Shown: one piece after another, positions 25,303-40,237 of the stretch
How the letters are laid out: each line of letters starts with the position of its first letter
Position numbering within the stretch: position 1 is the stretch's first letter
From: Rhodanobacter glycinis
GTDB taxonomy: Bacteria; Pseudomonadota; Gammaproteobacteria; Xanthomonadales; Rhodanobacteraceae
Length of the DNA stretch: 64,000 nucleotides
Assembly: GCF_900114325.1 (NCBI RefSeq)
Contig: NZ_FOSR01000003.1
Coordinates: forward strand, 186,001-250,000
Reading direction: 5' to 3'
Made by a program: the position numbers and the translations under genes
The notes under the pieces: model-generated
The model's database searches: none
What the model was told of the DNA's origin: nothing
The model's input: the letters and a program-made list of their open reading frames with translations, nothing else

Positions 25303-26519
25303 GAATATTGTTTTTTTCCGACAATTTTCCGCCGGAAAGCAATGCCCTGACCGCACGGCTCTATGAGCATGCGATGTACTGGATCAAGGCAGGACACCAA
25401 GTGACGGTGGTCACCTGCGCGCCGAACTTTCCGGAAGGAAAGTTGATGGCGGGCTACAAGAACCGTTGGCGGCAGGTGGAGGACATGGATGGAATCCGTG
25501 TCGTCCGCGTAAAGACCTATATGAGTGCCAACAAGGGCTTTTTGAAGCGCATGATCGATTTCATGAGCTTCATGGTGGTCGGCGCGTTCTTCGGCATGTT
25601 CGAACGTAAGCCGGACGTGGTCGTTGCGACATCGCCGCAGTTTTTCTGTGCATTGGGTGGTATGGCTGTTGCGCTATTGCGACGCAAGCCCTTCGTGCTG
25701 GAGGTTCGCGACCTTTGGCCTGATTCAATCGTCGCGCTGGGTGCTATGCGGCGTAATGCGCTAATTCGATCATTCGAGTGCATGGAGAGATTTTTATATC
25801 GTAGGGCGGATTCGATCGTTGCCGTGACCCAAGGTGTTCAAAGGGGAATTATTGATAAGGGAATCGACCCTGGGAAAGTTCATCTTGTCATAAATGGAGT
25901 CGAGCTCTCGCTTTATGGGGCATCTTCCTCTGACAGAGAAATGGCGTCCAATTATGATCTGAAAGGTAAGTTTGTTGTCGGCTACCTTGGGACGCATGGC
26001 CTTGCGTATGCTTTGAATGAAGTTCTGGATGCCGCGAAGCTTCTTGAGGCGCGAAGTGATATTGCTTTTTTCTTTGCCGGATCCGGTATTAATAGAGAAG
26101 CTATCGAGATGCGTGCCAAATCTATGCGCCTGACAAACGTAAGAATGGTTCCTAGGCAGCCGAAAGAAATGATGCCGGCATTATGGGATATGTGCAGTGT
26201 CGCGCTAATACCTCTAAAGGCGAATGACTTCTTTTCATTGACTCTGCCAGCAAAAATGTTTGAGGCGATGGGCAGTGGCGTTCCGCTGCTTTTTTCCGGT
26301 CCACGGGGCGAGGCTACGGAAATAATAGAAGAAACGGGTGCCGGTATCTGCATGCCCCCGGAAGATCCACAAGCGTTGGCAGATGCCATTTGTCGTCTTG
26401 CAGACGATCCACTACAAGTGAAAGAAATGCGTGATGCTGCGCGAGTTGCAGCGCCTGCGTACTCGCGCCAAGTACAAGCAATGCGCATGGAAGATGTACT
26501 ACGCGCTGTATCTGCATAG
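25299..26519 (+). CDS. wbuB: Glycosyltransferase, WbuB-like (GT4)
   Basis: 406-residue GT-B glycosyltransferase. The WbuB-type N-terminus LFFSDNFPPESNALTARLYE, VTVVTCAPNFPEGK, FVLEVRDLWPDSIVALGAM and the C-terminal LPAKMFEAMGSGVPLLFSGPRGEA are seen. WbuB-like enzymes transfer N-acetylated deoxyhexoses, often FucNAc, to a growing lipid-linked oligosaccharide; the donor here is uncertain. Codons for residues about 160-340 are AT-richer than the ends, suggesting a mosaic gene. Last gene of the plus-strand polysaccharide operon; convergent with the next gene (26 bp apart). Confidence 0.87.
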   Translation: MRILFFSDNFPPESNALTARLYEHAMYWIKAGHQVTVVTCAPNFPEGKLMAGYKNRWRQVEDMDGIRVVRVKTYMSANKGFLKRMIDFMSFMVVGAFFGMFERKPDVVVATSPQFFCALGGMAVALLRRKPFVLEVRDLWPDSIVALGAMRRNALIRSFECMERFLYRRADSIVAVTQGVQRGIIDKGIDPGKVHLVINGVELSLYGASSSDREMASNYDLKGKFVVGYLGTHGLAYALNEVLDAAKLLEARSDIAFFFAGSGINREAIEMRAKSMRLTNVRMVPRQPKEMMPALWDMCSVALIPLKANDFFSLTLPAKMFEAMGSGVPLLFSGPRGEATEIIEETGAGICMPPEDPQALADAICRLADDPLQVKEMRDAARVAAPAYSRQVQAMRMEDVLRAVSA

Positions 26520-26545
26520 CTTCCGGTTGCGACAAACCACCATCT

Positions 26546-28057
26546 TCAGTTGCCAACCAGGCTTGACAGAAATGTCAGGCTCCAGATCTCCTGAGCCGCA
26601 TCCGGTGTTTTTGGCATCTGGAGCCGGGAATAGTATTTGTCGACGAACGTACTTTTTTTGGTATCGGCCCCGTCGAGCAGACGATAGATCTGCAGGTTTA
26701 ATGACCGCAGCGTTTCATTGAATTCCCCCCATTGCGGATATCCCCCGGTCGGATACGACCAAGCCAGACTATATGGAGCCTGGCCTGGTCGGCACTGGTC
26801 GGTTCCGTTCGAGTAACCTGCGCGGTACCACCCGTTGCTTCCGTCCCAGAAGTTGCTGAACAGAGGGTGCTGCCTGTCCTTGTTCCATACCTTGTCCACG
26901 ATCTGATTGGCAAACGCCCGCTGCAATTTAGAGGGATTGAACGAGGGGTTGCTGTAGTCGAAGACCTTGGTCAGATTAGTGCGATTACGTACGAAAGAAG
27001 CCAGCGCTGGTACCAGGCGGCGGGCGTGGCTAAGGTCCCAGCCGATACTTGAGTCGACATAGGCGGCTTTGCTTTTTACACGGTAGGTTTTTTGCATCAC
27101 GCCGAAAATGTTCTGATGACAGGACACGGGACTGGTGAGTGCGTTGTAGGCGGCGTATTTGGAGTCGGCATAGTTGCGCCAGTAGCCGCGATCAATCTCT
27201 GCGCGTTGGTCGCCTGATGTATTAAATAGCGTGATCCGGGTAAGGAACAGGTTGAATATGCCGGCGATCTGGCTGTGCTTGGTTTGCAAGGACTGGAATG
27301 CTTGCCTCCCTGCGCCTTCCATCTTGACGCCGGTTTCATGTAGTTCAGCCAGGTCGGACAGTATGGTCATGAACCAGAGGTCGCGATCCTGGAAGAAATA
27401 CGTGGACTGTCCATCCTTGGCATCGGCTGATGTCATTCGGGTACGCGCAGCCACCGACTTGAAGTAGGTGGGTGACAGCCAGTTGTCCACCTGGGTAGCC
27501 ATGGCGGTGGCGGCGTTGACCACAAAGGCTTTTTCTGCGGCAGTTCGCTGGCTAGTGGGTATGGTTTCCACGATATCGGTGGCAACGGCGCCGAGCAAAC
27601 CGAGGAACTGCGCACTGCACAGTTGCACCTCTTTGCCGAGCAGATGATTTGCTGGCGTACATGTACTGCCACCAGTACAAACCCATCCACGGGTGCCAGG
27701 TGCGTCTGGCAGCGGGCGTAGGGACGCGAAGACGGGGCTGAGCGCATCGACCAGTTCAGCGATCTGCTGGCGGTCTTTGCAACGCCGGGTCATTTCAACG
27801 AAGGGCTGCAGCTCTTCCTGCGTATTGTACAGGACGTAGACGTTCCCTTCCTTGTTCAAGCCGCTGCTGATCTGGTTGCCGTAGTAACCGCGCAGTGCGT
27901 GTTCCCATAGCCCGATGGCTTGAGCGTGCACGGTTCCGGTGCATGAGAAATCAGGAGAAGTTGGCGGGGGCGTGGCAGACGTCCGCGCGTTAGCCGATGG
28001 CGGAGCGCCAATCAAGAAGATGGCTAGGGCAACCAGAGGAATCGCGATGATGCGCAT
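26546..28057 (-). CDS. Secreted protein of unknown function
   Basis: 503-residue protein starting with a signal peptide (MRIIAIPLVALAIFLIGAPPSANA). The mature part is largely helical by composition, with paired cysteines (SCTGTVHA, VCTGGSTCTPAN, QLCSAQF, VSCHQNIFG) that could form disulfides, and many Trp/Tyr residues (FFQDRDLWFMTILSDLAELHETG; LAWSYPTGGYPQWGEF). I do not recognise the family. An alpha-toroid polysaccharide lyase or other carbohydrate-active fold is conceivable given the position at the end of the polysaccharide operon, but no catalytic motif supports it. The start at 28057 is chosen for the signal peptide; the open frame upstream is not protein-like. Confidence 0.7.
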   Translation of the reverse strand: MRIIAIPLVALAIFLIGAPPSANARTSATPPPTSPDFSCTGTVHAQAIGLWEHALRGYYGNQISSGLNKEGNVYVLYNTQEELQPFVEMTRRCKDRQQIAELVDALSPVFASLRPLPDAPGTRGWVCTGGSTCTPANHLLGKEVQLCSAQFLGLLGAVATDIVETIPTSQRTAAEKAFVVNAATAMATQVDNWLSPTYFKSVAARTRMTSADAKDGQSTYFFQDRDLWFMTILSDLAELHETGVKMEGAGRQAFQSLQTKHSQIAGIFNLFLTRITLFNTSGDQRAEIDRGYWRNYADSKYAAYNALTSPVSCHQNIFGVMQKTYRVKSKAAYVDSSIGWDLSHARRLVPALASFVRNRTNLTKVFDYSNPSFNPSKLQRAFANQIVDKVWNKDRQHPLFSNFWDGSNGWYRAGYSNGTDQCRPGQAPYSLAWSYPTGGYPQWGEFNETLRSLNLQIYRLLDGADTKKSTFVDKYYSRLQMPKTPDAAQEIWSLTFLSSLVGN

Positions 28058-28495
28058 AAGGGCGGCTTCGGAAGTTATGGGGGCCGGGACCGTGAGGTTC
28101 CGACATGTGCAGCGTGCACAGCATAACTTTCGACCGAGCTTGGAATTCGGGGATTCGCGGTCGATTTTTCTTGCGTTTCTGTCTGGTTTATTGAGCCACC
28201 TTGATTGCCCGTATGAATTTTTGTGGAAACTCAGGGTACAGTCCAAAAGACACCGCCGTATGCATGGCTGCGCTGTACTTCGGGATCTCCGCGATTGAAT
28301 GGTTCTTGAACTTGGTGAGGAGTGAGCACCTGTTGCGCGAAGAGAAGATCCGCGAGGTATGACCCGCGTCAAAAGGCTCGGGTCGGAAGGTGTCAGCAGC
28401 GTGCTCAGCTCCCGTGGATTGGCTCGATTGCTTTCGCTTTCTTTCGAGGTGGCCAGTAACGGCGACCTTCTGCTCTATCGTCGGTTATGGGTGTC
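28058..28495. other. Intergenic region
   Basis: 438 bp without a convincing gene. It includes the presumed promoter of the secreted-protein gene; a TATGCT sequence on the minus strand near 28122 is a candidate -10, and a GTGCA-GCG-TGCAC palindrome lies nearby. Base composition is lower in GC than the genes around it. Confidence 0.4.
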
Positions 28496-28816
28496 CTACC
28501 GCTTCTTAGCGCGCGCTTTAAGCTCGCTCACAACGGTCCGCTGCTCCGCGCGCGGCAGCTTTGCAAACGCAATGATCATCTCTGCGATTTCGTCTGTATC
28601 CGCATACAGCGCTGCGAGCGGCATTTCCAGTGCGTCTGCGAGTCTTTTTGCGGTGCGTAGGTCGCACTCGTTAACGCCACGTTCGTAGCGGTTGATCCGT
28701 GTACGTGCCACTTCAGCCACGATCCCGGTGGCGACGCCAAGCGCTTCCTGAGTCAAGCCTGCAGCCAGTCGGGCTGCACGCAAGCGGTTGGCGAAAATGA
28801 AGCGGGCGTCGTCCAA
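28496..28816 (-). CDS. XRE-family transcriptional regulator
   Basis: 106-residue protein with an N-terminal Cro/CI helix-turn-helix: ANRLRAARLAAGLTQEALG, then TRINRYERGVNECDLRTAKRLADAL (about residues 9-66). The C-terminal stretch (DEIAEMIIAFAKLPRAEQRTVVSEL) resembles tails of small phage or plasmid repressors. Between the two HTH helices there are a few extra residues (ATGIVAEVART) compared with the usual spacing. It is divergent from the TonB-dependent receptor gene, with a palindrome between them, so it may regulate receptor expression or itself; that is inference. Confidence 0.82.
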   Translation of the reverse strand: MDDARFIFANRLRAARLAAGLTQEALGVATGIVAEVARTRINRYERGVNECDLRTAKRLADALEMPLAALYADTDEIAEMIIAFAKLPRAEQRTVVSELKARAKKR

Positions 28817-28876
28817 GGTATTGCCACGGGAATGTGAGTCGTAGAGTCAGCATGCAGTCTTGCTCTCGTCTTGTCT

Positions 28877-28893
28877 GTTACTGTATAAGTAAC
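28877..28893. promoter_or_regulatory. Palindromic operator candidate between xre and the receptor gene
   Basis: GTTACT-GTATA-AGTAAC is a perfect 6-bp inverted repeat with 5-bp spacer. It contains a TATAAG -10-like sequence and a TTGCTC hexamer lies 18 bp upstream. Typical size for an XRE-repressor site. Confidence 0.5.
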
Positions 28894-29066
28894 ATTGTGA
28901 TGCTGTTGCGGCAATCGATTTGCCTGTTTGCCGCTTTGCGGCCAGCGATTCGGGACGCATCACCAGTGCGAGTCATTAGCGGGACATATCTCGCCTGACG
29001 ACCTTGCAACTCCGAGACACACGGGACCGGCAGGCCAGAAGGGCCAACCAAGGGGAGGGACGCAGC

Positions 29067-31457
29067 ATGAAAACAAGCACGCTACGCAACGCCATTTCCA
29101 TCGCTTTGCTTGTGGCCGCCACCGGCACCGGCGATTGGGCCATGGCCCAGGACGCCACGAAGGACGCGACTGCGCAGGGCAGGGCGCCAGTGATTGACGC
29201 ATCAGGTAAGACGCACCTGAAACACACGACAGACGTCACCTCGCCGCCAGCCATCACGAATCTGGAAAGCGTGCAGGTCACAGGCACGCGCATCCGCGGC
29301 GGCACCACGCCATCGCCCGTCATCACGATCGGCAGTGAACAGATCCAGCAAGAAGGTTTCACCGACCTCGGCCAAGTGATTCGTAGCGTGCCGCAGAACT
29401 TTTCTGGTGGGCAGAACCCGGGCGTCGCGGCAGGCGCAGCGCAAGGTGGGCCCAGTGATCAAAACCTGACTGGCGGTTCGGGCCTCAATCTCCGTGGGCT
29501 GGGGCCAGATGCCACTTTGACCCTGCTCGATGGCCGTCGCATGTCCTACGGCGGGGCCGTACAGGCTGTCGACATCAGTGCCATCCCGGTTGAGGCAGTG
29601 GAACGCATCGAGATCGTGCCGGATGGTGCCTCGGCCATCTATGGCTCCGATGCGGTGGGCGGCGTAGCCAATGTAATCCTCAAAAGCGACTTCGATGGTG
29701 TGACCGTTGGCACGCGCTATGGCGGTGCCACCGACGGAGGGCTGTCCACGCACGAGTACAACGTCACCGCTGGCACTACCTGGGCCACGGGTGGCTTGAT
29801 TGTGGCCGGGGAGAAAACCTCCAGCGATCCGATCTACTCGGACCAGCGCGACTACACCCAATCAATGTACCGGCCTTCGACGTTGTGGCAGGGCAACGAC
29901 TTGCGCAGTGGCCTGCTCAGCCTGCACCAGTCGTTGGGAGATGCCGTTGAGCTGCATCTGGATGCACTCAAGAGCGAGCGGGATATCCACACAGCGACGG
30001 GTTATGGCAGCGTTTATTACCTCTATCGGGCGCGGACCGATACCACTCTGGTAGCACCCAGTCTCGAAATGGATTTGTCGGGCGACTGGACGCTCACGAT
30101 CAGCGGGGCGGTGGGGAAAGACAAGACGTCTTTTGTTGAGCCGACGGTGAGTAGTGCGAGCGGGATGGCCATCGCAAGTGGCCTTGGTGCGTACCGCAAC
30201 AAAAGTCTGATTTACGAGATCGGCGCGGAAGGGCCGTTGTTCACACTGCCTGGGGGCGAAGCAAGGCTGGCTACGGGTGCGGGCTATCGATACAACGATT
30301 TTCTATACATGGGTGGCAGGACGATCTACGCCGATGGCGACGAAAACAGTCGTTTTGCCTATGCCGAGTTAAACCTTCCAGTGGTTGGGCCGGAGCAGGG
30401 CATTGGGGGCATTGAGCGGCTTGCGCTGACTGGCGCGGTCCGCACCGAAGATGGTGATTACGGGAGGGTGACCACGCCCAAGCTCGGGGTGATCTATTCG
30501 CCTAATGCCGATTTCTCGTTGAAAGCCTCATGGGGCAAGTCGTTCAAGGCGCCTACGCTCCTGCAGCGCTATTTCGCCCAGAACGCCGTCTACTATCCGG
30601 CGTCGACATATGGCGGCGGTTATCCGACGGATGCCGCGGTGCTGTTTCTGACGGGTGGAAACGCGAGCCTGCAGCCGGAGCGGGCACAGACATGGAGTGC
30701 CTCGCTCGCATTCCACCCGGAAGGATTGCCCAGCTTTGAGACGGAGCTGAGCTGGTTCGATATCGACTACACCCAACGTGTCCTGCAACCGATCACTACG
30801 AACAATGTGTTCGGTAATCCGATCTATGCGGATTTTGTCGACTACGATCCAACCGAGGCCGCGCAGGCGGCGGTGCTGGCAAGTACCAGTAACTTCTACA
30901 ACTACGTTGGCACACCTTACGACGCCAGCAAGGTCGTGGCGATCGTTGATGGCCGGTATGTCAATGCATCCCGGCAGCAGATTAAAGGAATCGATCTGTC
31001 GGGGTCGTACCGAGCTGACTTGGGCACGGGGCAATTGACGTTCCGTGGCTCGGCCAGTTGGTTGGACAGCACACAATCCCTGACGGCGGCGCAAAGCCCT
31101 TACGACCTGGCCGGTACGTTGTTCTACCCAGCCAGGATCAGCAGCCGAGTCGGGGCGGCGTGGCATCAGGGTGGCTTCACCGCTTCGCTGTTTGGAAACT
31201 ACAAGAGCGGAGTAACCGATACGGCAGACGGCAGGAAGGGCGCCTCGTTTACTACCTTCGACGCCACGCTGCGCTATGACACCGGCGCGCGCAATGACAT
31301 CTGGTCGAACGTGGCATTGGAGCTGTCGGCACAGAACCTGCTCAATCGCGCGCCGCCGTTATACGCAGTCACATCGTTGACCCTTGCGCCTTACGACTCG
31401 ACCAACTACTCGGCGATCGGTCGTTATCTCAGCCTCTCTGTTTCCAAGCACTGGTGA
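29067..31457 (+). CDS. TonB-dependent outer-membrane receptor, lasso-peptide associated
   Basis: 796-residue receptor. A signal peptide covers about the first 27 residues (ending WAMAQ). The plug domain contains VQVTGTRIRGGTTPSPV (TonB-box/plug start), NLRGLGPDATLTLLDGRRM and the classic VERIEIVPDGASAIYGSDAVGGVANVILK. A 22-strand barrel follows, ending in aromatic W (LSLSVSKHW). The start at 29067 has AGGGGAGGGA about seven bases upstream. Together with the adjacent isopeptidase it fits the proteobacterial lasso-peptide arrangement in which the receptor takes up the peptide, possibly with a bound ligand, for intracellular hydrolysis; the ligand is inferred, not shown. 52 bp separates it from the isopeptidase gene. 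Confidence 0.9.
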   Translation: MKTSTLRNAISIALLVAATGTGDWAMAQDATKDATAQGRAPVIDASGKTHLKHTTDVTSPPAITNLESVQVTGTRIRGGTTPSPVITIGSEQIQQEGFTDLGQVIRSVPQNFSGGQNPGVAAGAAQGGPSDQNLTGGSGLNLRGLGPDATLTLLDGRRMSYGGAVQAVDISAIPVEAVERIEIVPDGASAIYGSDAVGGVANVILKSDFDGVTVGTRYGGATDGGLSTHEYNVTAGTTWATGGLIVAGEKTSSDPIYSDQRDYTQSMYRPSTLWQGNDLRSGLLSLHQSLGDAVELHLDALKSERDIHTATGYGSVYYLYRARTDTTLVAPSLEMDLSGDWTLTISGAVGKDKTSFVEPTVSSASGMAIASGLGAYRNKSLIYEIGAEGPLFTLPGGEARLATGAGYRYNDFLYMGGRTIYADGDENSRFAYAELNLPVVGPEQGIGGIERLALTGAVRTEDGDYGRVTTPKLGVIYSPNADFSLKASWGKSFKAPTLLQRYFAQNAVYYPASTYGGGYPTDAAVLFLTGGNASLQPERAQTWSASLAFHPEGLPSFETELSWFDIDYTQRVLQPITTNNVFGNPIYADFVDYDPTEAAQAAVLASTSNFYNYVGTPYDASKVVAIVDGRYVNASRQQIKGIDLSGSYRADLGTGQLTFRGSASWLDSTQSLTAAQSPYDLAGTLFYPARISSRVGAAWHQGGFTASLFGNYKSGVTDTADGRKGASFTTFDATLRYDTGARNDIWSNVALELSAQNLLNRAPPLYAVTSLTLAPYDSTNYSAIGRYLSLSVSKHW

Positions 31458-31509
31458 TGCTGCGTTGGAGCCGAGCGATACATTGCCATGCTGGTATAGG
31501 AGTGAGGTC

Positions 31510-33714
31510 ATGATGTCTGTTCCTTTCTACGTCATCACCAGACGGATTTTGAGCCTGGGGCTGTTACTTAGCGTGTTTGCTGCTGTCCCCCAGGCTTTTG
31601 CGGTGTCGCCACGGCAACTGGTGGAGATCGCGGACTTCAGTAGTCCAGTGGTTTCGCCCGACGGAATGTATGTTGCGTTCCGGGTGTCGCGAGCATCGAT
31701 CGAGCGCAATACCTACGACACCGTTTGGTACATCCAGCGGATGGATGGATCGTCGCCGCCGCAACGTGTGGGCGACGGTGGCTTTCCCCTGCGCGACTCG
31801 GCCGGCATTCCCGTGCCGGCCACGGTGGTCTGGTCGCCGGACGGGCGCTGGGTGTATTACCGCGCCCGGTTGGGCGGTCGCATCGACGTTTGGCGTGCTT
31901 CGATCAACGGCGCGGCTGCCGAGCGCGTGACCGGCGGCGATGCCGATGTGCGAGGCTTTGCCCTGAGCGATGACGGCAAGGTGCTGAAGTACAGCATAGG
32001 GCCGACGCGCGAGGATGTGGCTGCGGCGGAGCAGTCCGAATACGACCACGGCATTCACGTCGACCGATCCACTCCACTCGGACAGCCCTTGTTCCGATCC
32101 GGCTATACCGAAGGGCGTCCGACTACTCAACGTTTGGGCCTCATGTTCAACCGGATCGACCTGACTGCTGATGTGCCGGATCGCTGGAAGGCGATCGATC
32201 TGGCGAGCGGTGCGGTACGGGATCTCGCGCCATCCGAAAGGCCGCCCAAGGTGCTGGAGGCGTCGGATCTTGCTAAACGAGTGCCTCACATCTGGAAATT
32301 GGCGCGCGATCGCAAAAGCGGGCGTATCGCGCTAGTGACGCGCACGGGAGCAAGAGCGGGTCGGCCACGGATCGAGCTAGCTATGTTGCCAAGCCGCGAC
32401 GCACGTCACTTGGTGAAATGCGTGGCGGAGGCGTGTGTCGGCAAGCGGATCAGTGGTGTGCAGTGGCGCCCCGGGACCGATGAAGTGATCTTCACCGTCA
32501 CGCCCTACGACCGCGGCTTCGCCCAGTCCATTTATCGCTGGAATGTAGATACGGGCGCGGCTCATCTGGTCGCCACATCGAGTGGTTTATTTGGCGGAGA
32601 AAAGCGCTGGGAACCCGGAACCTGTGGTGTGTCATCCAAGGCGTTGGCGTGCGTGACAGCCAATGCCAATCGCCCGCCACGGTTGGAAAGGGTCGATCTG
32701 CAGACTGGGGCGCGACAGGTGCTATTCGACCCGAATAAGGCCCTGGCGCAGGATCTCGCCAAGATTCCAACACAACTGTTGCGTTGGACGGATGCGAAAG
32801 GAAGAACGTTCACCGGCCAGCTCTACTCGGCACGCCGGAGTGGTAACACACCGCCGCCTTTATTCATCACCTACTACTGGTGCATCGGTTTCGTGCGGGG
32901 AGGGGCCGGCGACGAGTGGCCGTTGGCCACGATGGCGGAACAGGGTATTTCCACGCTTTGCATTAACTCACCCTCGTTCTCGCCCGATGCCGACAAACGC
33001 TACAGCATGGGGCAATCGGCTGTAGAGAGTGCGGTGCAACTGCTCGCATCGGAGGGCCGTATCGACAGATCGAAGGTTGGGATGGGCGGGCTCAGTTTTG
33101 GCAGCGAAGTGACGATGTGGACGCTCATCCATTCTGACGTAATTACAGCAGCATCGATGGCGTCGCCCACCACGTCGTTTATGTATTACCTATTGGGTAG
33201 CAATATCGGGAAGCCGTTCTTGTCGCTGCTACGGACGAACTGGCAACTGGGTGCTCCGGACAAGACGCCCGCACAGTGGCGGAAGATTTCGCCGACCTTG
33301 AATCTGGACAAGATTCACGCCCCGATACTGATGCAATTTCCTGAGCAGGAATACATGTTTGCACTTGGCTATGCCATTCCGCTTATGCTAAGTCATCGCG
33401 CGGACGTCTATGTTTTTCCCAACGAGCCACACAACAAGTTCCAGCCCCGACACAAGCTTGCCGTGTACGCGCGTAATTTGGACTGGTTCCGGTTCTGGCT
33501 GCAGGGGTATGAGGATCCGGATCCGACAAGGGCAGCGCAATACGCCCACTGGCGCACCATGCGGTCGAGCATGTGCCAGGAAGCCAGGAACACATTGTGC
33601 GATAGGGAGCACTCTAGGGCTGATGGCGTACCCAGTTCTCGACCATGCACAAGTCGAACATTCTCAGGAAGGTTCTGTCGCGCGGCGGCAAAGGCCTTGA
33701 AAAGAAGGAGCTGA
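31510..33714 (+). CDS. Lasso-peptide isopeptidase, AtxE2 family (S9-type serine hydrolase)
   Basis: 734-residue protein with an N-terminal signal-like segment (residues 1-31, ending PQAFA), a beta-propeller-like domain (VSPDGMYVAFRVSRASIE; WSPDGRWVYYRARLGG), and a C-terminal alpha/beta-hydrolase domain. The nucleophile is in GGLSFGSE (Ser about 529), the histidine in NEPHNKF (about 641), and an acidic residue is in FPEQEYM (Glu 612 or 614). The block YYWCIGFVRGGAGDEWPLA is characteristic of AtxE2-type enzymes, which cut the macrolactam isopeptide bond of lasso peptides. The start has AGGAG seven bases upstream. The last roughly 33 codons overlap the 3' end of the cyclase gene on the other strand and look unlike a normal C-terminus. 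Confidence 0.9.
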   Translation: MMSVPFYVITRRILSLGLLLSVFAAVPQAFAVSPRQLVEIADFSSPVVSPDGMYVAFRVSRASIERNTYDTVWYIQRMDGSSPPQRVGDGGFPLRDSAGIPVPATVVWSPDGRWVYYRARLGGRIDVWRASINGAAAERVTGGDADVRGFALSDDGKVLKYSIGPTREDVAAAEQSEYDHGIHVDRSTPLGQPLFRSGYTEGRPTTQRLGLMFNRIDLTADVPDRWKAIDLASGAVRDLAPSERPPKVLEASDLAKRVPHIWKLARDRKSGRIALVTRTGARAGRPRIELAMLPSRDARHLVKCVAEACVGKRISGVQWRPGTDEVIFTVTPYDRGFAQSIYRWNVDTGAAHLVATSSGLFGGEKRWEPGTCGVSSKALACVTANANRPPRLERVDLQTGARQVLFDPNKALAQDLAKIPTQLLRWTDAKGRTFTGQLYSARRSGNTPPPLFITYYWCIGFVRGGAGDEWPLATMAEQGISTLCINSPSFSPDADKRYSMGQSAVESAVQLLASEGRIDRSKVGMGGLSFGSEVTMWTLIHSDVITAASMASPTTSFMYYLLGSNIGKPFLSLLRTNWQLGAPDKTPAQWRKISPTLNLDKIHAPILMQFPEQEYMFALGYAIPLMLSHRADVYVFPNEPHNKFQPRHKLAVYARNLDWFRFWLQGYEDPDPTRAAQYAHWRTMRSSMCQEARNTLCDREHSRADGVPSSRPCTSRTFSGRFCRAAAKALKRRS

Positions 33715-35362
33715 TGGCGCGCGTGTCCAGGAGGCCTTGTGACTCGAGACGACCCGATAGCAGGAAGTCTTCGATCTGATGCTTGTTCCGTTCATACATG
33801 GCTCCCAGGTAGCTCATGTAAGTCGCCTTGCTTTGGCGGTTCAGCACGTCGGGTGGCAAGCGGTCGGAAAAAGCGGTTCGTGCGACCGCGCGATTTCTGC
33901 CCCCGGCGATCCACATCCAGCTTGGTGCCCGGAGGCAGGCTTCCATGACAGGTTGTGTCAATAGTGGAAACCGTAGAGGTCGTCTGTATTTGCGCGCTGC
34001 CTGGCTCTCGAAAAGCTGATTCCCAGCCAGATCGAAAATTCGCTCCCGGTCACCCGGTAACGCATTCATGGGAGCCGCAAACCATGGATGTGCTTCCGGC
34101 TCTACGTGTGCCGAGCTTGGTGCCAAGAACGTGGGATCTTGATGGAAAGGAGATTGAGGCGGCCGCCGAAGTTTGGAGAGGGTAAGGCGGCCTGCCTTCC
34201 AGAATGTGCATTGGTGCAGGCTAGCCAAATTGCGCACGGCAGTGATGGCGTCACCGAAACTATGAGCTCTCCAGGCATCAGCACTGGGAGCCGCGGTCCG
34301 GAGATAGCAGAACACTGAATCGCCTCCTCCTCCCGAGTAATAGGCGGTGGCGCCGTGGTGTTTGGCAGCTGCCTCCATGACCTCGTCCACGACATACTGC
34401 AAGGGCCCCATCGCGGGAATCACGGAGTCGGGAGGGGGCGTAAAGTTAAAACGTGCCTTGTCGAAGCTCAGGTGCTCAGCGTGGAGTTCGACGCCGAGCT
34501 GTTCTGCCACCTGACGCGCGTACTGCTGTTCATCCACTCCGGGAACCGGGGTAACCAAATTGCAACAGGTGACGTGCGCATGGCAATTCCGTAGACATGC
34601 CGCGACGATAGATGAGTCGAGGCCGCCGGATAATTCCAGCAATATGGAGCGGTCCACACTCATCCATGCGCGGACAGCACTCTCGACGGCGTGGAGGACC
34701 TGGTTCGCCGCATCGCGCAAGTCGCGGTAACGCTGTTCGCGGGCGACGAAATTCCAGGGCGACCACGCTTGCCGGATTGAGACCTCGGTGCCACTTGTAC
34801 GTAACGAACAGCCAGGCAGCAGTTCGAATAGATCAGCGAGTCCAGTGCGTTCCGTCTTGATGTCGGGATAACGCAGGCGGTGAGCGATGAAATCCCAGTT
34901 GACCTGCTTTCGGTAGAGAAGGGCCTGGAGGGCCAGGGAAATGTCTGACGTAAGGAAGCCTGCCCCATCTTTGATAGACCAGACGCACGGAAGATTGCCG
35001 GCGGCTGATGGGGCCCGCGTCATCGTGAACGCTCCGGGGTGCCGTGTATCAGGCTGGATAATGAGGTACGAGCCCCAGTAGATTTCCAGTATGTGCTTTT
35101 GGGTCTGCGTTGGATCTGAATGCCTTGGAAGTTTTGCGCTGTCGCGGACAGCGATCCCGTCCCGTGTAAACAGGTGGCCGATGACTATCCCCCCGCCAGG
35201 CAGTGACAACGTCGACGTGTCCTCCGTCCCGAACAGTGTCAGTTTGCCTGACGCATAGTGGACGCGCATACCTATCGCATGAAGCGTATCAGCCAAGTTG
35301 GAAAATTTGGTGTCAGCACTCTCGTCCGCGGGGGCCAGGATAGCGATGTAATCGTTGTCCAT
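33614..35362 (-). CDS. Lasso-peptide macrolactam synthetase (C protein, AsnB-like)
   Basis: 582-residue asparagine-synthetase-like protein lacking the N-terminal Cys2 nucleophile: it begins MDNDYIAILAPADES, so it cannot hydrolyse glutamine. The PP-loop ELSGGLDSSIVAA lies near residue 243, with YYSGGGGDSVFCY about 100 residues later and RFPLLTQPVMEACL near the C-terminus. C proteins adenylate the ring Asp/Glu side chain of the precursor and let the alpha-amine of Gly1 attack, closing the macrolactam around the tail. Its ATG overlaps, as TGATG, the stop that the B gene would have in the intact frame, indicating coupled translation. It converges with and overlaps the isopeptidase gene by 101 bp. 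Confidence 0.9.
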   Translation of the reverse strand: MDNDYIAILAPADESADTKFSNLADTLHAIGMRVHYASGKLTLFGTEDTSTLSLPGGGIVIGHLFTRDGIAVRDSAKLPRHSDPTQTQKHILEIYWGSYLIIQPDTRHPGAFTMTRAPSAAGNLPCVWSIKDGAGFLTSDISLALQALLYRKQVNWDFIAHRLRYPDIKTERTGLADLFELLPGCSLRTSGTEVSIRQAWSPWNFVAREQRYRDLRDAANQVLHAVESAVRAWMSVDRSILLELSGGLDSSIVAACLRNCHAHVTCCNLVTPVPGVDEQQYARQVAEQLGVELHAEHLSFDKARFNFTPPPDSVIPAMGPLQYVVDEVMEAAAKHHGATAYYSGGGGDSVFCYLRTAAPSADAWRAHSFGDAITAVRNLASLHQCTFWKAGRLTLSKLRRPPQSPFHQDPTFLAPSSAHVEPEAHPWFAAPMNALPGDRERIFDLAGNQLFESQAARKYRRPLRFPLLTQPVMEACLRAPSWMWIAGGRNRAVARTAFSDRLPPDVLNRQSKATYMSYLGAMYERNKHQIEDFLLSGRLESQGLLDTRAISSFFSRPLPPRDRTFLRMFDLCMVENWVRHQP

Positions 35363-36041
35363 CAGATCACCCGTATGGGCGTGAAGGCTGACGTGTGCCC
35401 CACAGAATCATTCAGAACCGTGGTCCGAGCTGCGCCCAGCTGTGCGCGGAGAATGGGTCTCCTGTCACGCCGAAGACGAGATCGGCATACAGCTCACGCT
35501 TGGCCAGGAACTTGATCATCGCGATGGAATCGAGAAGGCAACACGTATCTATCGGGACGTACAGGCGCGCGCTGCGGAAAGCAGCTGCAGCCTCCAGAAC
35601 ATGGGATTCATTCGGACAGCTTGTTGAAAGTCGAGATGTCCGTTTTCCTCGAAAGGATGCAAGCCTCCAGAGGACCTGCTTCAGACCATGGGTTTTCAGT
35701 TGCCGCCGTATTGAACAGACGATTGCCAAGGTGTCCAGCCATTCGCTGACGCTTGTCCGACTGGCGTGAACAACCTCTTCCTCCATCGCGCTACGCGTGG
35801 GAGTTTTTGTAAATAAAAGTGGTGTGTGATCGGAGTCGACGAGTTTTTCGATCAGTATGTTTCGTTCGATCAATCTACGAATGCTGCTGGCTGGTGCATC
35901 GCCGTTATCCAGATAAGTGACCAACGCAGACTCCAGGCACCCACCGAGACGAAAGTACCGATCGTTTTGGATGTCGAGGAAGATCAGGTGGCCATCGACC
36001 CTGCAGAATGACAGGTCACGATGTAGTCTGAGTTGTGTCAT
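35362..36041 (-). CDS. Lasso-peptide B protein (RRE + transglutaminase-like protease), apparently frameshifted
   Basis: As sequenced, the frame runs from ATG 36041 (GGAG eight bases upstream) to a premature TGA at 35412-35414, giving 209 residues. Residues about 1-75 form a PqqD-like leader-recognition domain (LSFCRVDGHLIFLDIQNDRYFRL); the rest is a B2 transglutaminase-like peptidase with Cys in PIDTCCLLDS (about 167) and His in FSAHSWAQ (about 200). Shifting by one base at 35418-35423 opens VLND and later AFTPIRVI, the expected B2 C-terminus with the catalytic Asp, ending TGA at 35362-35364 and overlapping the C gene. The gene therefore has a one-base deletion, or the assembly is wrong there. 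B recognises the leader and cleaves after it. Confidence 0.88.
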
Positions 36042-36062
36042 TTGCATTACTCCGGAAAAGAG

Positions 36063-36084
36063 AGGCGCGCCTTTCGGCGCGCCT
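36063..36084 (-). terminator. Stem-loop between lasso precursor and B gene
   Basis: Nine-bp GC stem (AGGCGCGCC/GGCGCGCCT, loop TTTC) directly after the precursor stop. On the minus strand it is followed by TCTCTTTT. It probably protects or partly terminates the precursor mRNA so that A is expressed above B and C. Confidence 0.65.
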
Positions 36085-36090
36085 TGTCGG

Positions 36091-36231
36091 TTATGCTTCG
36101 GAGATGCCGCCAAGCGGGGATCCACCGAAGTTCTCGATGAATCCGCCGGGCCCTTTGGTTTCGACGCTTGCGACGCCGAGTTCGATGACCTCGTCCTGCG
36201 CGTTGCTGCGAATGTTTTCGTTCGTGTCCAT
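36091..36231 (-). CDS. Lasso-peptide precursor (A), 46 residues
   Basis: Small gene read directly from the sequence: ATG at 36231 with AGGAG about six bases upstream, TAA at 36091. The leader (residues 1-26) contains DEVIELGVASVETK, with Thr at the penultimate position as in known lasso leaders. The core (27-46) is GPGGFIE followed by NFGGSPLGGISEA. Gly1 and Glu7 could form a seven-residue macrolactam ring like that of the xanthomonins; the bulky Phe/Asn/Leu residues of the tail may act as plugs. The ending GISEA resembles other proteobacterial cores. Position directly before B and C, and the isopeptidase nearby, make the identification strong. No second precursor was found between here and the GntR gene. 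Confidence 0.88.
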   Translation of the reverse strand: MDTNENIRSNAQDEVIELGVASVETKGPGGFIENFGGSPLGGISEA

Positions 36232-36250
36232 CTTAATCTCCTGCGTTTGC

Positions 36251-36269
36251 GTCATGGCTGTTCCATGAC
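36251..36269. promoter_or_regulatory. Inverted repeat in the precursor leader region
   Basis: GTCATGG-CTGTT-CCATGAC, a perfect 7-bp inverted repeat with 5-bp spacer, 20-38 bp upstream of the precursor ATG. Could be an operator or an mRNA hairpin. Confidence 0.45.
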
Positions 36270-36292
36270 GCGGCCACCGTAGGAGCCGGGAA

Positions 36293-36307
36293 ATTTGATC
36301 TTCAAAT
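36293..36307. promoter_or_regulatory. Palindrome upstream of the lasso precursor
   Basis: ATTTGA-TCT-TCAAAT, a perfect inverted repeat in a short AT-rich promoter-like stretch; TCATC-T-GATGA lies at 36321-36331. Candidate binding sites for the GntR-type protein encoded upstream. Confidence 0.45.
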
Positions 36308-36399
36308 GATTATTGCGTTGTCATCTGATGATTAATCCGGGAGTGTGATGTTCGTCACGTTATGCCGGACTTTGCCGCGATGCTTTTCGCTGACGCGCG

Positions 36400-37026
36400 C
36401 TAGTGAAGGTGGTCGCTGCGCTCGTTCAGCAGGGCCACGATGCACGGGACGAGTTGCTTGCGGCGTTCGTGATAGTCGTGCAGTGCGGCTTTCAGGGCTG
36501 GCATGTCGCGCTTTTGCCAGTGCCGGTTCAACTGCGCAAGCTCTTTGCCGAGGTGCTCGATCAATCCCAGTTTGGACCGGCGTATCGGCGCCAGCCGGTC
36601 GTTGGCCTGCTTCACGGCATGGTGCAAGGATCTATGGGTTGTTGCGCGGGCGATGGCGTCGAACAGTTGCCACGTCTGTTTGGGCAGGTCGTCGTCGGGT
36701 GCGGGCTCCAGCGTTTCCGCTTTCTGGGCTGCCGGTGCTGCGCCGATATCGCATGCCATCAGCAGCAGGCGTTCCATCCAGTCGTAGAGGTCGCGCATGG
36801 CCACTTCGGTAAGCAGCGGGACGTGCAGTCCGCCGCGGGCCTGATCGACGACCAGTGCTTCGCCGACCAGACGGTAAAGCGCGAACCGAACAGGTGTGGG
36901 ACTGGTGTTGAACTCGGTGGCGAGCGTGGCCGGGTCAATCCGCTGCCCGGGGACGTAATGTCCGGATCGCAGTGCGCGCCGAACCTGTCGATACACGAAT
37001 GCACTTTTGGAGTGGGTCGCATCCAT
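36400..37026 (-). CDS. GntR-family transcriptional regulator (FadR-like)
   Basis: 208-residue regulator: N-terminal winged helix (FVYRQVRRALRSGHYVPGQRIDPATLATEFNTS, with the PTPVRFALYRLVGEALV recognition part) at residues about 9-75, followed by an all-helical FCD-like effector domain (MRDLYDWMERLLLMACDIGAA ... KLGLIEHLGKELAQLNRHWQKRD). The start at 37026 has AGGGGGA about eight bases upstream. It lies just upstream of, and in the same direction as, the lasso A-B-C genes, so it probably controls them; the palindromes at 36251-36331 are candidate sites. The ligand is unknown. Confidence 0.85.
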   Translation of the reverse strand: MDATHSKSAFVYRQVRRALRSGHYVPGQRIDPATLATEFNTSPTPVRFALYRLVGEALVVDQARGGLHVPLLTEVAMRDLYDWMERLLLMACDIGAAPAAQKAETLEPAPDDDLPKQTWQLFDAIARATTHRSLHHAVKQANDRLAPIRRSKLGLIEHLGKELAQLNRHWQKRDMPALKAALHDYHERRKQLVPCIVALLNERSDHLH

Positions 37027-37416
37027 AGCTGATCCCCCTGTTTGTGAGTCGTTGCGTCCTGAGCCGGATGGTATGAGGGCTGGGCAAGTGGGATCAGGCC
37101 GCAAATGAAATCCGCACGTCGGTGTGTCTGGATTTGCGAGGAGGGTTTTACCATAGAGTTTCGCTGGATGTGACGAAGCCATGGGATGTGCGGAGCGCGC
37201 GTCGCTGCGTATTCCAGCCAGAATGACCACCTGATCCGGCAATAGCTGACCTTTCTTCCGGTGTTGGCCACCGTGCTGCAACCTACCCGTCGGCTCGCCC
37301 TTAATTCGCCCGCCGCGTTCCGTGAAGACGCTCTGGCGAGGGCAGGGAAGATCATCGCCTCAGCGATAGAGCCCGGCAGAAGCAAAAGCCAATAGTCGGG
37401 CGAAGGGATTGTTGGC

Positions 37417-37432
37417 GTAGTTTACAAACTAC
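37417..37432. promoter_or_regulatory. Palindrome upstream of the toxin remnant
   Basis: GTAGTTT-AC-AAACTAC, a perfect inverted repeat 10 bp before the toxin remnant; typical of an autoregulatory toxin-antitoxin operator. Confidence 0.45.
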
Positions 37433-37442
37433 GATTGCGCCT

Positions 37443-37568
37443 GTGATCGAGCTAAAGCAGACCGAGACATTCGCCAAGTGGGAAAGCCGCCTGCGTGACA
37501 AGGTTCGCCCTGAGCGTAATTCCGCAGGGCCGCAGGCATGGAATGCCTATGGATGGCCGTGGCTTTGA
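37443..37568 (+). pseudogene. Truncated RelE/HigB-type toxin gene
   Basis: GTG start followed by VIELKQTETFAKWESRLRDK, the N-terminus of a HigB/RelE-family 'addiction module killer' protein. After residue 20 the frame enters a dispersed repeat (GTTCGCCCTGAGCGTA) and ends after 41 codons. The rest of the toxin and any antitoxin are gone, so it is a remnant disrupted by repeat insertion. Confidence 0.6.
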
Positions 37569-37761
37569 GGCGCGAGGAAATTGAAGGGCGCGCGAAGGAG
37601 CGCTTCGACTTTGCGTGCTGGCGCAAGCTACGCTCAGCGCGAACGAAATCCATGGCTGAACTTCGTGGCCAATCAGAACGTAGTTTGGGGGCGTTTCCCA
37701 AAGCTTCGCGGCGCCGTAGAAATACAAAACCGCTTTGTTTGGCAGTCGGCTGAATAGCGCC

Positions 37762-38907
37762 TTATTCTGCCTGTACTCCGCCATGCAGCGGACTCTGGCT
37801 GGTACTTGGCAGCATGGGGTTTCGGCCGCTTGACGTGATGTCAGCATCATTGGCAGCCGGTGGCCCGACCAAGCCGCGACGACGCGATTCCTGGCGCAGC
37901 CAAATACGCGTAACCATGACGACGTACACGCCCAGCAAGGTACCAAATGCCAGCAGGCTAACTTCGGTGCCCAGCATGCGCGTGACCGAGCCGCAGAAGG
38001 CGAGGGTGGCGGCCAGTGCGATCAGGCAGACAAGGGTGCGGCGGGAGCTCAGGCCGGCGCCCATGAGGATGTGATGGATATGCCCGCGATCCGGCTTGAA
38101 CGGCGATTTGCCCTGACGCAGCCGACGGTACATCACGGCGATGGTGTCGAGTACGGGAAGCGCAACGCACCACAGTACGTCGATCGGGGAAATATGCCTT
38201 GGCGAAGCCTGGCTGAAATCGATCAGGGTCCAGGCAAACAGATAGCCCAACACCATGGAGCCGGCGTCGCCCAGGAAAATCTTGCGGCCGACCAAGCCGA
38301 GATTGGCGGCCAGATAGGGGAGCAGTGCGCAGCCCGTGAGCAGCATCAGCGCGGTCGGGCCGTGCATTTGTGCAGCATTGCTGTACAGCAGGATGGCGCC
38401 AATGGTGACCAGCGACAGGCTGCCGGCCAGGCCATCGATGCCGTCCATCATGTTGAAGGCGTTGAGCAGGCCGATGACGGCGACCACGGTAAAGGGCACG
38501 CCCAACCAGCCAAGGGCCAGCTCGTGACCGAACAGGTGACCCACGCTGTGAATATAGACGCCCGTCGTCCCGATCACGGTGAGGATGGCGGCGGTTTGCA
38601 CCAGCAGACGGGCGCGCACACTCAGGTCGTAGCGGTCATCCAGGGCGCCGAGCAAGGCAAGCACTGCCGAGGTGGCGAGCAGCATCTTCACGAAATACGA
38701 GAAGCCGTCGAACCATAGCGCGGCCACCAGCATGCCGATGAAGACGGAAAGGCCGCCCACCAGCGGGATGTTGCCTTGGTGCAGTTTGCGTTTGTTGGGG
38801 CGGTCAACCAGGCCGAGTCGCTCGGCAAGGTTTGCCAGAATGAACAGTGCGATGGCCGAGACGCCTGCTGCCAGGGCGCAGGCGAGAACGATCCGTGTGT
38901 CGAGCAT
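37762..38907 (-). CDS. wecA: Undecaprenyl-phosphate GlcNAc-1-phosphate transferase, WecA/MraY family
   Basis: 381-residue polytopic enzyme with about 11 membrane segments. Family motifs: LVDRPNKRKLHQGNIPLVGG near the N-terminus, LLGALDDRYDLS (the DD motif), NAFNMMDGIDGLAG, IFLGDAGSMVLGY, and the WecA-type cytoplasmic loop KPDRGHIHHILMGAGLS. It starts lipid-linked polysaccharide synthesis by transferring a HexNAc-1-phosphate to undecaprenyl phosphate on the inner membrane. The start at 38907 has GGAG six bases upstream. It is probably the initiating transferase of the polysaccharide locus, separated from it by the lasso cluster. Confidence 0.92.
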   Translation of the reverse strand: MLDTRIVLACALAAGVSAIALFILANLAERLGLVDRPNKRKLHQGNIPLVGGLSVFIGMLVAALWFDGFSYFVKMLLATSAVLALLGALDDRYDLSVRARLLVQTAAILTVIGTTGVYIHSVGHLFGHELALGWLGVPFTVVAVIGLLNAFNMMDGIDGLAGSLSLVTIGAILLYSNAAQMHGPTALMLLTGCALLPYLAANLGLVGRKIFLGDAGSMVLGYLFAWTLIDFSQASPRHISPIDVLWCVALPVLDTIAVMYRRLRQGKSPFKPDRGHIHHILMGAGLSSRRTLVCLIALAATLAFCGSVTRMLGTEVSLLAFGTLLGVYVVMVTRIWLRQESRRRGLVGPPAANDADITSSGRNPMLPSTSQSPLHGGVQAE

Positions 38908-39090
38908 TGGATTCTCCTCAATCCATCCCTGTTGAAAGGCACCGGGCAGACAAAACTGTCCGATAGGGGCGGTAAAGCAATCCTTGACGTCGATCAACGA
39001 CGCCCGGATGACATACGCATGAAGATTTGGAACCGCCCCCTGTCTGATGCGTCCGTTCCACTCCGTGCCATAGACGTCAAACGAACCGCG

Positions 39091-39099
39091 ATTCTAGCA
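39091..39099 (-). promoter_or_regulatory. Possible extended -10 of wecA
   Basis: Minus-strand TGC-TAGAAT about 185 bp before the wecA start; no clear -35. Confidence 0.3.
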
Positions 39100-39341
39100 C
39101 GTCATTCCAAGCCTGAAACTAAACCGGAGCGAAATAAAACGGCTGTATGTCCATGATTTTGCCGAATATGTGTAGAGGTGGTGAAGGGCGGCATATTCAG
39201 GGACGTTTTGGCGGGAACTCGCCGTTTGCGTTATTGCCGCGCCGACTGGTTGCCGCCCGGAGGCGGCGTCAAAATCGTCGTGGTGCAAGGCAGGATGATC
39301 GGAGGTCATGATCTTGGGCTCCAATTCGTGACCGATGCTTG

Positions 39342-39417
39342 TAGCCCGTTGGCGGGCGATGCTCTTGCTGCTATTCCCTCCAGAAAAGCATCGCCCGCGA
39401 ACGGGCTCCTGCAACAG
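39342..39417. repeat. Variant family I hairpin
   Basis: Same layout as family I but with CCCGTTGGCGGGCGATGCTC and AGCATCGCCCGCGAACGGGC arms, ending CTCCTGC. Confidence 0.7.
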
Positions 39418-39531
39418 AATTGTTCGAGGGGCCCCGAAGGGTTCCTCGGAAGACCCATCAATTTGCGTCATTCCGGCGAGGTGCCTTTCGACAGCCGAAG
39501 GGCTGGTCGGGCCGGATGACGAGCAAAAAAA

Positions 39532-39544
39532 GGGGGGGGGGGGG
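39532..39544. repeat. G13 homopolymer preceded by A7
   Basis: Thirteen consecutive G residues after seven A residues. No open reading frame depends on it; length is likely variable or sequencing-sensitive. Confidence 0.8.
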
Positions 39545-39579
39545 CTCGAGGGTCCTTAAAGCGGCTTTCCGTGACGCCC

Positions 39580-39649
39580 TCAATGGAACATCAGGTTGAT
39601 TGCCACCATGGTGATGGCCAGGACCACGAAGGTCAGCGAAATGCCGCAC
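39580..39649 (-). pseudogene. Duplicated 3' end of the SLC13 transporter gene
   Basis: Encodes CGISLTFVVLAITMVAINLM-FH and a stop, nearly identical to the last 22 residues of the intact SLC13 protein encoded at 41722-43563 (GIPLTFVVLAITLVAINLMF). The DNA match continues a few bases past the stop (GCCCTCAATGG). A remnant left by duplication or recombination. Confidence 0.8.
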
Positions 39650-39699
39650 TCGGACGGGCCTTTTGCAGGGCGCGCTTGGCCGAGAAATGTTTCTTTAAG

Positions 39700-39730
39700 T
39701 TGACATTTTTTGATAAATGATCATTATAAG
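39700..39730 (+). promoter_or_regulatory. Promoter with overlapping palindrome for the AbiE-like pair
   Basis: TTGACA at 39700-39705 and TTATAA/TATAAG at 39724-39730 (spacing 18-19 bp), with the palindrome AATGATCATT (39716-39725) between them. This layout fits autorepression by the HTH protein encoded just downstream. Confidence 0.6.
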
Positions 39731-39754
39731 AAACACTTTACGAAAGTTAGCACC

Positions 39755-40237
39755 ATGAATCTTCTCGTATCCAAGTCGGAAACTGCCCTCACGCTCGGGC
39801 AAACATTGCGCATCCGGCGCAAGTCGCTGGGTCTGAGCGCAGTGGCGGCTGCAGAAGCCGCCGGGATTTCCCGTGTGACCTGGCATCGACTGGAAAAGGG
39901 GGAGGCCAGCGTGGCGGCCGGTTCGCTATTGGCCGCTGCCGAGGTACTCGGCTTGCGTGTCGAGCTGCTTGCGCCTGCTTCGATACCGGAGCAGGCGACG
40001 GCTACGGGCCCCCTGGCGGATCATTTGCCATTGCATATCCGTCTGCACGATTTTCCGCAATTGCGCCGGCTGGCTTGGCAGGTAGCCGACGATACGCAGG
40101 TGCTCACGCCACGCGAAGCGCTGGATTTGTATGAGCGCAATTGGCGGCACGTTGAACTTGAGGCTCTCGAGCTGCGGGAACGTGCCCTGATCAAGGCATT
40201 GCAACAGGTCTATGGCAAGGGACTACTGGATGTTTGA
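39755..40237 (+). CDS. HTH antitoxin-like regulator paired with an AbiEii-type protein
   Basis: 160-residue protein with an XRE-type helix-turn-helix at about residues 13-70 (TLGQTLRIRRKSLGLSAVAAA, ISRVTWHRLEKGEASVAAGS, LLAAAEVLGLRVEL) and a helical C-terminal half (DFPQLRRLAWQVADDTQVLTPREALDLYERNW). The downstream gene overlaps it by 8 bp. In type IV-like modules the first gene encodes an HTH antitoxin that represses its own promoter, and the palindrome over the -10 fits that. The exact antitoxin family is uncertain. Confidence 0.75.
   Translation: MNLLVSKSETALTLGQTLRIRRKSLGLSAVAAAEAAGISRVTWHRLEKGEASVAAGSLLAAAEVLGLRVELLAPASIPEQATATGPLADHLPLHIRLHDFPQLRRLAWQVADDTQVLTPREALDLYERNWRHVELEALELRERALIKALQQVYGKGLLDV

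What the first reader, a model, noticed from the sequence alone, without database searches (positions are those of the whole stretch)
28496..37026. Complete lasso-peptide system with an unannotated 46-residue precursor and a predicted seven-residue ring
Seen: TonB-dependent receptor, AtxE2-type isopeptidase, C and B homologues, GntR regulator, and a tiny ORF (36091-36231) with leader ending SVETK and core GPGGFIE/NFGGSPLGGISEA. Known: lasso leaders carry Thr at -2; ring closure is between Gly1 and an acidic residue at 7-9, and seven-residue rings (xanthomonins) are rare. Inference: Gly1-Glu7 macrolactam with Phe, Asn or Leu plugs; the product has probably not been isolated.
Basis: partly seen in the sequence, partly recalled or inferred. 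Interest (0 to 1): 0.92.

Follow-up and report, generated by a model that had tools for sequence, protein, structure and literature searches.

The report
Seven-ring lasso cluster, broken protease gene
A soil bacterium carries the genes for a small knotted peptide with an unusually tight ring, but as sequenced one processing gene is cut short, so the strain may keep only the genes thought to take up and untie such peptides; some relatives carry such uptake-and-untie genes on their own.

Summary
The lasso cluster is real. The 46-residue precursor sits exactly at 36091-36231(-) and passes the cut-offs of Pfam Subterisin and NCBIfam benenodin. Beside it are GntR, B, C, an AtxE2-type isopeptidase and a TonB-dependent receptor. 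Of 34 distinct cores read, 28 carry Glu7, so a Gly1-Glu7 ring is well supported; in this clade it is the norm. It is a new member of the xanthomonin kind.

"Complete" is not supported. The only B protease gene found in the genome is frameshifted near its 3' end and loses the segment with the LN(D/E) acid, the probable third catalytic residue; 29 of 29 relatives compared keep it. Of four genes tested, only B looks relaxed on this branch; isopeptidase and receptor stay constrained. The strain is probably a former producer, unless the shift is an assembly error.

Following this up, I found 12 receptor-isopeptidase modules without A/B/C beside them in six related genomes, five in one tandem array. 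They are scattered among producer isopeptidases on a tree, and in 7 of 11 cases isopeptidase and receptor have the same nearest producer. This suggests consumers of foreign lasso peptides, like siderophore piracy. Searches listed no paper reporting this.

The parts
36091..36231 (-). A: 46-residue lasso precursor; leader ends ...SVETK, core GPGGFIENFGGSPLGGISEA
35412..36047 (-). B: leader-protease ORF, frameshifted near its 3' end (211 aa; 20 relatives 224-234 aa), lacking the VLN(D/E) segment
35362..35430 (-). lost 3' end of B, still readable in another frame and running up to the C start
33614..35362 (-). C: asparagine-synthetase-like macrolactam synthetase, full length against relatives
31507..33714 (+). 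AtxE2-family lasso isopeptidase; Ser/His/acid motifs align with AtxE2; about 40 extra residues at the end overlap C, probably after an 8-bp tandem duplication at 33575-33590
29067..31457 (+). TonB-dependent receptor, plug and barrel, no STN domain found
36400..37026 (-). GntR-family regulator upstream of A
36063..36084 (-). 9-bp G+C-rich hairpin between A and B, conserved in relatives
36249..36271 (-). 9-bp dyad GCGTCATGG-N5-CCATGACGC just upstream of the A ribosome-binding site; its inner 7-bp-arm form occurs once in the genome
28496..28816 (-). HTH (XRE/RstR-like) regulator divergent from the receptor gene

Best explanation
This is a xanthomonin-type, isopeptidase-containing lasso peptide locus. 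A was made to be bound and cut after Lys-1 by B, and closed by C into a Gly1-Glu7 macrolactam with a threaded tail; the receptor would take the peptide up and the isopeptidase would linearise it. In this genome the B gene has a recent frameshift that removes its C-terminal segment with the probable catalytic acid. The strain therefore most likely no longer matures the peptide, while the receptor-isopeptidase half is still maintained. Shown: gene content, homology, core conservation, frameshift in the assembly, constraint pattern. Inferred: loss of B activity, the uptake role and the fate of the peptide.
For: Family hits for all six genes. A, B, C, isopeptidase and receptor in the same order in 20 of 20 distinct relatives' loci; GntR in all 20 genomes, but 6-7.5 kb away in two. 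Glu7 conservation. In 29 of 29 relatives (32 loci, three of them repeating a genome) B keeps the segment lost here; the B2 profile match is cut short in the window and not in the three relatives tested. B and C overlap in 20 of 20 relatives' loci, starts placed by alignment, against a 49-nt gap here. One B2-type match in the genome. Codons changed only in the window, N:S: B 10:8 against C 17:52, isopeptidase 9:51, receptor 10:39; Fisher p = 0.002. Isopeptidase catalytic motifs align with AtxE2 5txc.
Against: The genome is a 29-contig draft and no reads were available, so an assembly error is possible. The lost tail is still intact in another frame, so the lesion is recent at most. B in the window does not differ significantly from B on the other three branches (10:8 against 18:35, p = 0.16), and pairwise dN/dS of B with the window (0.21-0.34) is only slightly above that between relatives (0.16-0.27). 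Counts are small; A and GntR were not in the branch test. A shortened B with Cys and His might keep some activity.
Confidence: 0.66

Rival explanations
1. The B frameshift is a sequencing or assembly error and the cluster is a normal, working xanthomonin-type system.
For: Draft assembly; the tail is intact in the other frame and ends on the C start as in relatives; C, isopeptidase and receptor are full length.
Against: The site is not in a homopolymer (sequence). Of four genes tested B alone has a raised N:S ratio on this branch.
Confidence: 0.3
2. B is completed by programmed ribosomal frameshifting, so the locus is functional as it stands.
For: The tail frame is open and runs to the C start.
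Against: By eye there is no slippery heptamer at the site (no program was run). The 29 relatives encode B in one frame.
Confidence: 0.04
3. The ring closes through another acid, or the small ORF is not a lasso precursor.
For: Of 34 cores read, 4 have an acid at 8 but not 7 and 2 have Asp7-Glu8.
Against: The window core has Asn8 and Phe9, so Glu7 is the only candidate at 7-9; precursor profile hits pass their cut-offs.
Confidence: 0.03

Closest known systems
Xanthomonins I-III, seven-residue-ring lasso peptides (Hegemann 2014; seen only as citations and a figure legend of PMC13352647)
   Same: Gly1, acid at 7 (seven-residue ring is in the title cited); a core in G367 (L031/L054), GGPLAGEEIGGFNVPGISEE, is from recall that of xanthomonin I and shares Gly1, Glu7, Gly10-Gly11 and the GISE tail with the window core.
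   Different: Ring residues 2-6 differ (PGGFI here); B is frameshifted here; the legend says the xanthomonin I crystal structure lacks four tail residues, whereas nothing is known of the tail here.
StcA, Stenotrophomonas acidaminiphila (PMC4675943, whole text)
   Same: Leader ...LGVASVETQ, core GILQGNEPMGGEPVPGISEE, predicted seven-residue ring.
   Different: Core sequence; a prediction there as well.
AtxE2 / astexin-2,-3 system (PMC9266682, passages; PDB 5txc)
   Same: GntR, A-B-C, isopeptidase, TonB receptor; isopeptidase Ser-His-acid motifs.
   Different: That review names sigma/anti-sigma pairs in such clusters; none found here, an HTH regulator instead.

Membership tests
Class II lasso peptide cluster | Precursor with Thr-2 and small residue at core position 1 | tested here: met
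   Sequence and profiles
Class II lasso peptide cluster | C homologue (Asn_synthase) with SGGLDS motif | tested here: met
   (PF00733, 108.6 bits)
Class II lasso peptide cluster | Intact B leader protease with Cys-His-Asp triad (triad as in PMC11420955, passages) | tested here: not met
   Cys and His present; segment with the (D/E) lost by frameshift as assembled. Which residue is the acid is inferred from spacing; McjB numbering recalled.
Class II lasso peptide cluster | Threaded macrolactam product | not testable with these tools
   Needs MS/MS and NMR
Xanthomonin kind (seven-residue ring) | Acidic residue at core position 7, conserved in relatives | tested here: met
   28 Glu7 and 2 Asp7 of 34 cores read
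Isopeptidase-containing lasso clusters | AtxE2-type isopeptidase with Ser-His-Glu/Asp and TonB receptor | tested here: met
Isopeptidase-containing lasso clusters | Sigma/anti-sigma pair near receptor (named in PMC9266682) | tested here: not met
   No FecI/FecR hit over 45 bits in window 24001-42000 with the queries

The most novel reading that the evidence does not exclude
Isopeptidase-type lasso peptides of these soil bacteria are shared goods that are pirated. Besides producers there are consumers that carry receptor(STN)-isopeptidase modules, mostly with FecI-FecR, matched to other strains' lasso peptides; one genome has five in a row, at five different places of the isopeptidase tree. The window strain is a producer caught turning consumer: B is broken, receptor and isopeptidase are kept.
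Probability: 0.35. Interest if true: 0.8.

Novelty: new member of a known kind. Interest (0 to 1): 0.5.

Why it matters
The role of isopeptidase-type lasso peptides is open; the known ones, astexin-1 excepted, lack antimicrobial activity according to PMC9266682 (passages). Receptor-isopeptidase modules that stand without biosynthesis genes, and whose two proteins mostly point to the same producer, make the idea of a secreted and retaken, siderophore-like carrier or signal directly testable: give the foreign lasso peptide to a strain with an orphan module and look for induction and linearisation. One match points to a core that I recall as rhodanodin, a known compound.

Tried and rejected
Programmed frameshift in B: no slippery site seen by eye. 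Outer stem CTCCTACG...CG(N)AGGAG sequestering the ribosome-binding site of A: not supported, because the 3' side varies without compensation (by eye). The leader dyad as an operator shared with the receptor operon: no second good copy in the window and no second exact copy in the genome. A solved structure for B or for the core: none. Asp194 of McjB in print: no paper found. Mirror-distance test on 20 loci: C-isopeptidase rho 0.73, C-receptor 0.49, C-GntR 0.32, but without a species-tree baseline, so only suggestive. Precursor matches at E 0.001-1 are mostly inside longer frames and were not used.

Rows dropped: L035-L037 repeat L034, L033, L032 and were counted once; L065 13732-16000 is a cut copy of the L035 gene and was left out of the tree; an isopeptidase fragment at L069 13681-14016 was not counted; the pattern fixes Thr-2 and Gly1, so Gly1 there is not a finding (allowed G, A, S, N or C, and every true precursor it listed had G); one search missed the core of G374 (found) and was run before L072 was fetched (core); precursor hits without a fetched locus were not read; one search scored at most five candidates a genome, so isopeptidase counts are lower bounds; one orphan receptor (L065 8775-11153) was missing.
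Full report
WHAT IS THERE. The window lies in contig C11 of a 3.87-Mb, 29-contig genome. On the minus strand lie GntR (36400-37026), A (36091-36231), B (35412-36047) and C (33614-35362); convergent on the plus strand are the receptor (29067-31457) and the isopeptidase (31507-33714). The precursor passes both curated cut-offs. In 20 of 20 distinct relatives' loci A, B, C, isopeptidase and receptor stand in this order; GntR is there in all 20 genomes but 6-7.5 kb away in two.

THE CORE. Of 398 genomes of the order, 32 (own included) have a precursor match below E 0.001 (my count of its listing). Reading the fetched loci gave 34 distinct cores: 32, one (L072), one (G374). Glu7 is in 28, Asp7 with Glu8 in 2, an acid only at 8 in 4. 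Thr-2 and Gly1 were fixed by the pattern, but allowed other first residues and every true precursor it listed had Gly. The tail GI(S/A) is in 31 of the 32 cores. In the window core Glu7 is the only acid at 7-9. A seven-residue ring is therefore the best reading, and in this clade it is the common form.

B IS BROKEN AS ASSEMBLED. The window B ends ...FSAHSWAQLGPRF. In 29 of 29 relatives (32 loci, three of which repeat a genome) B continues with L(N/S)(D/E) and a further stretch. In the alignment of 13 the Cys is at 168 and the His at 200 of L034, both invariant, and the acid at 212 falls in the 17 columns missing from the window. The Cys-His spacing of 32 and His-acid spacing of 12 equal those of McjB C150, H182, D194, which I recall and did not find in print. 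A Cys-His-Asp triad in the B2 domain is described in PMC11420955 (passages). The B2 model is matched at 8-112 of 132 in the window and to 129-131 in the three relatives tested. The lost end is still readable in another frame up to the C start. In 20 of 20 relatives' loci B and C overlap, starts placed by alignment; here a 49-nt gap is left. No second B2-type match was found in the genome. Codons changed only in the window, against L032-L034: B 10 non-synonymous to 8 synonymous, C 17:52, isopeptidase 9:51, receptor 10:39. B against the other three genes on this branch p = 0.002; B here against B on the other branches p = 0.16; B against the rest on the other branches p = 1.0. Pairwise dN/dS of B is 0.21-0.34 with the window and 0.16-0.27 between relatives. 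This leans to a real, recent loss, but an assembly error is not excluded. The isopeptidase end is also changed: it runs about 40 residues past the relatives' end, probably because of an 8-bp tandem duplication at 33575-33590 seen in the sequence; its catalytic motifs remain.

CONTROL ELEMENTS. A G+C-rich hairpin follows the A stop codon. Exact arms of at least 7 bp occur in 19 of 21 loci, window included, against 2.1% of simple shuffles; in the other two the fold still shows a hairpin. There are 14 different 5' arms, so pairing is kept while letters change. In the window it folds with z -3.5. It may set the A to B-C ratio (inference). A second dyad, (C)GTCATGG-N4-6-CCATGAC(G) in most loci, lies just before the ribosome-binding site of A, with arms of at least 7 bp in 21 of 21 loci (2.0% of shuffles); its exact 7-bp-arm form occurs once in the genome. 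Whether it is an operator (GntR?) or an RNA hairpin was not settled.

RECEPTOR-ISOPEPTIDASE MODULES WITHOUT BIOSYNTHESIS. In 233 genomes of the family, 41 places in 30 genomes exceed the isopeptidase cut-off (at most five candidates scored a genome) and 34 genomes have a B2 over its cut-off. 11 of the 41 have no B2 match near. Around them no A, B or C was found by tblastn and no precursor by pattern, and one more was found at the left end of the G164 array, where 16 kb further out hold none (L104). That makes 12: five in tandem in G164, two each in G374 and G472, one each in G473, G401 and G370. One G472 case lies at a contig edge and is undetermined on that side. G164, G374, G472, G473 and G370 also have A-B-C elsewhere; G401, of the window's genus, has no B2 match at all. 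FecR and FecI homologues sit beside 10 of 12 (not G401, G370); in the producer loci read I saw no FecR of their own and one FecI (L047), the pair next to the G164 producer being assigned by gene order to the neighbouring orphan. The receptor has an STN signalling domain in 11 of 11 orphan receptors tested and in 5 of 23 of producers, window included. On a tree of 45 isopeptidases (12 orphans, 33 producers) the label needs 12 changes, at least 11 forced by well-supported branches; shuffled labels need 10.7 on average, so the orphans are not clustered at all. They are not all of different types: by identity four have L052 and three L044 as nearest of 23 producers, but the five of G164 stand at five different places of the tree. 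For 7 of 11 orphans the nearest producer is the same by isopeptidase and by receptor, and for 9 of 11 it is within the first three (the binomial p-values there ignore relatedness). Against: G401 and G164a have a receptor of another type than their isopeptidase (ranks 10 and 15). G164b is 92% and 94% identical to the G255 pair (L050); G164e is 86% and 93% identical to the G374 pair (L073), whose core GVLPIGNEFMGHAATPGITE I recall as rhodanodin.

HOW IT WORKS. Most likely: leader binding and cleavage by B, closure by C, release, retake through the TonB receptor and linearisation by the isopeptidase. Per PMC9266682 (passages) isopeptidases act on the threaded, cognate peptide, and the known peptides of such clusters, astexin-1 excepted, lack antimicrobial activity; PMC11006600 (passages) reports a Sphingomonas B2 insertion mutant that lost phenanthrene use and mentions the siderophore-like proposal. 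The orphan modules fit that proposal and add that foreign peptides may be taken. That is inference; no function was tested. That the producers mostly lack STN and FecI/FecR while the orphans have them means that the orphans are not simply worn-down producer clusters of this kind; the window strain, with its producer-type receptor, would be an early case by another road.

NOVELTY. The cluster is a new member of a known kind. For the orphan modules, searches with lasso peptide, isopeptidase, orphan, FecI, cheater and piracy terms listed no paper whose title or shown abstract start reports them; only the held open-licence library was searched, and full texts were not read for this point.

Noticed in passing
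L064 11-14001, L065 1-16000, L035 8-8026 (G164 C16 about 146000-180300): Tandem array of five receptor-isopeptidase modules with FecI/FecR and no A/B/C among them, directly beside a producer cluster with full-length B.
   Followed up: yes
L071 (G370 C1:1-16000) and L070 (G370 C13): A-B-C with GntR but no isopeptidase or receptor in the 4.5 kb left of C; a receptor-isopeptidase pair lies on another contig.
   Followed up: partly
window 36249-36271 and relatives: Conserved dyad and upstream block (AATCATTTGAAAATCAAA) before A; promoter/operator or RNA element undecided.
   Followed up: partly
window 28496-28816; L040 17826-18143; L070 14409-14726: HTH regulator beside the receptor, 92% identical in L040 and 89% in L070, although L040's B and C are only 47-51% alike: a separate history, perhaps mobile.
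   Followed up: no
L048, L050, L043: Receptor and GntR are 74-84% like the window's while C is only 47-48%: the A-B-C-isopeptidase part seems to have been exchanged between kept flanks.
   Followed up: partly
L036, L040: GntR lies about 6-7.5 kb away from A instead of next to it.
   Followed up: no
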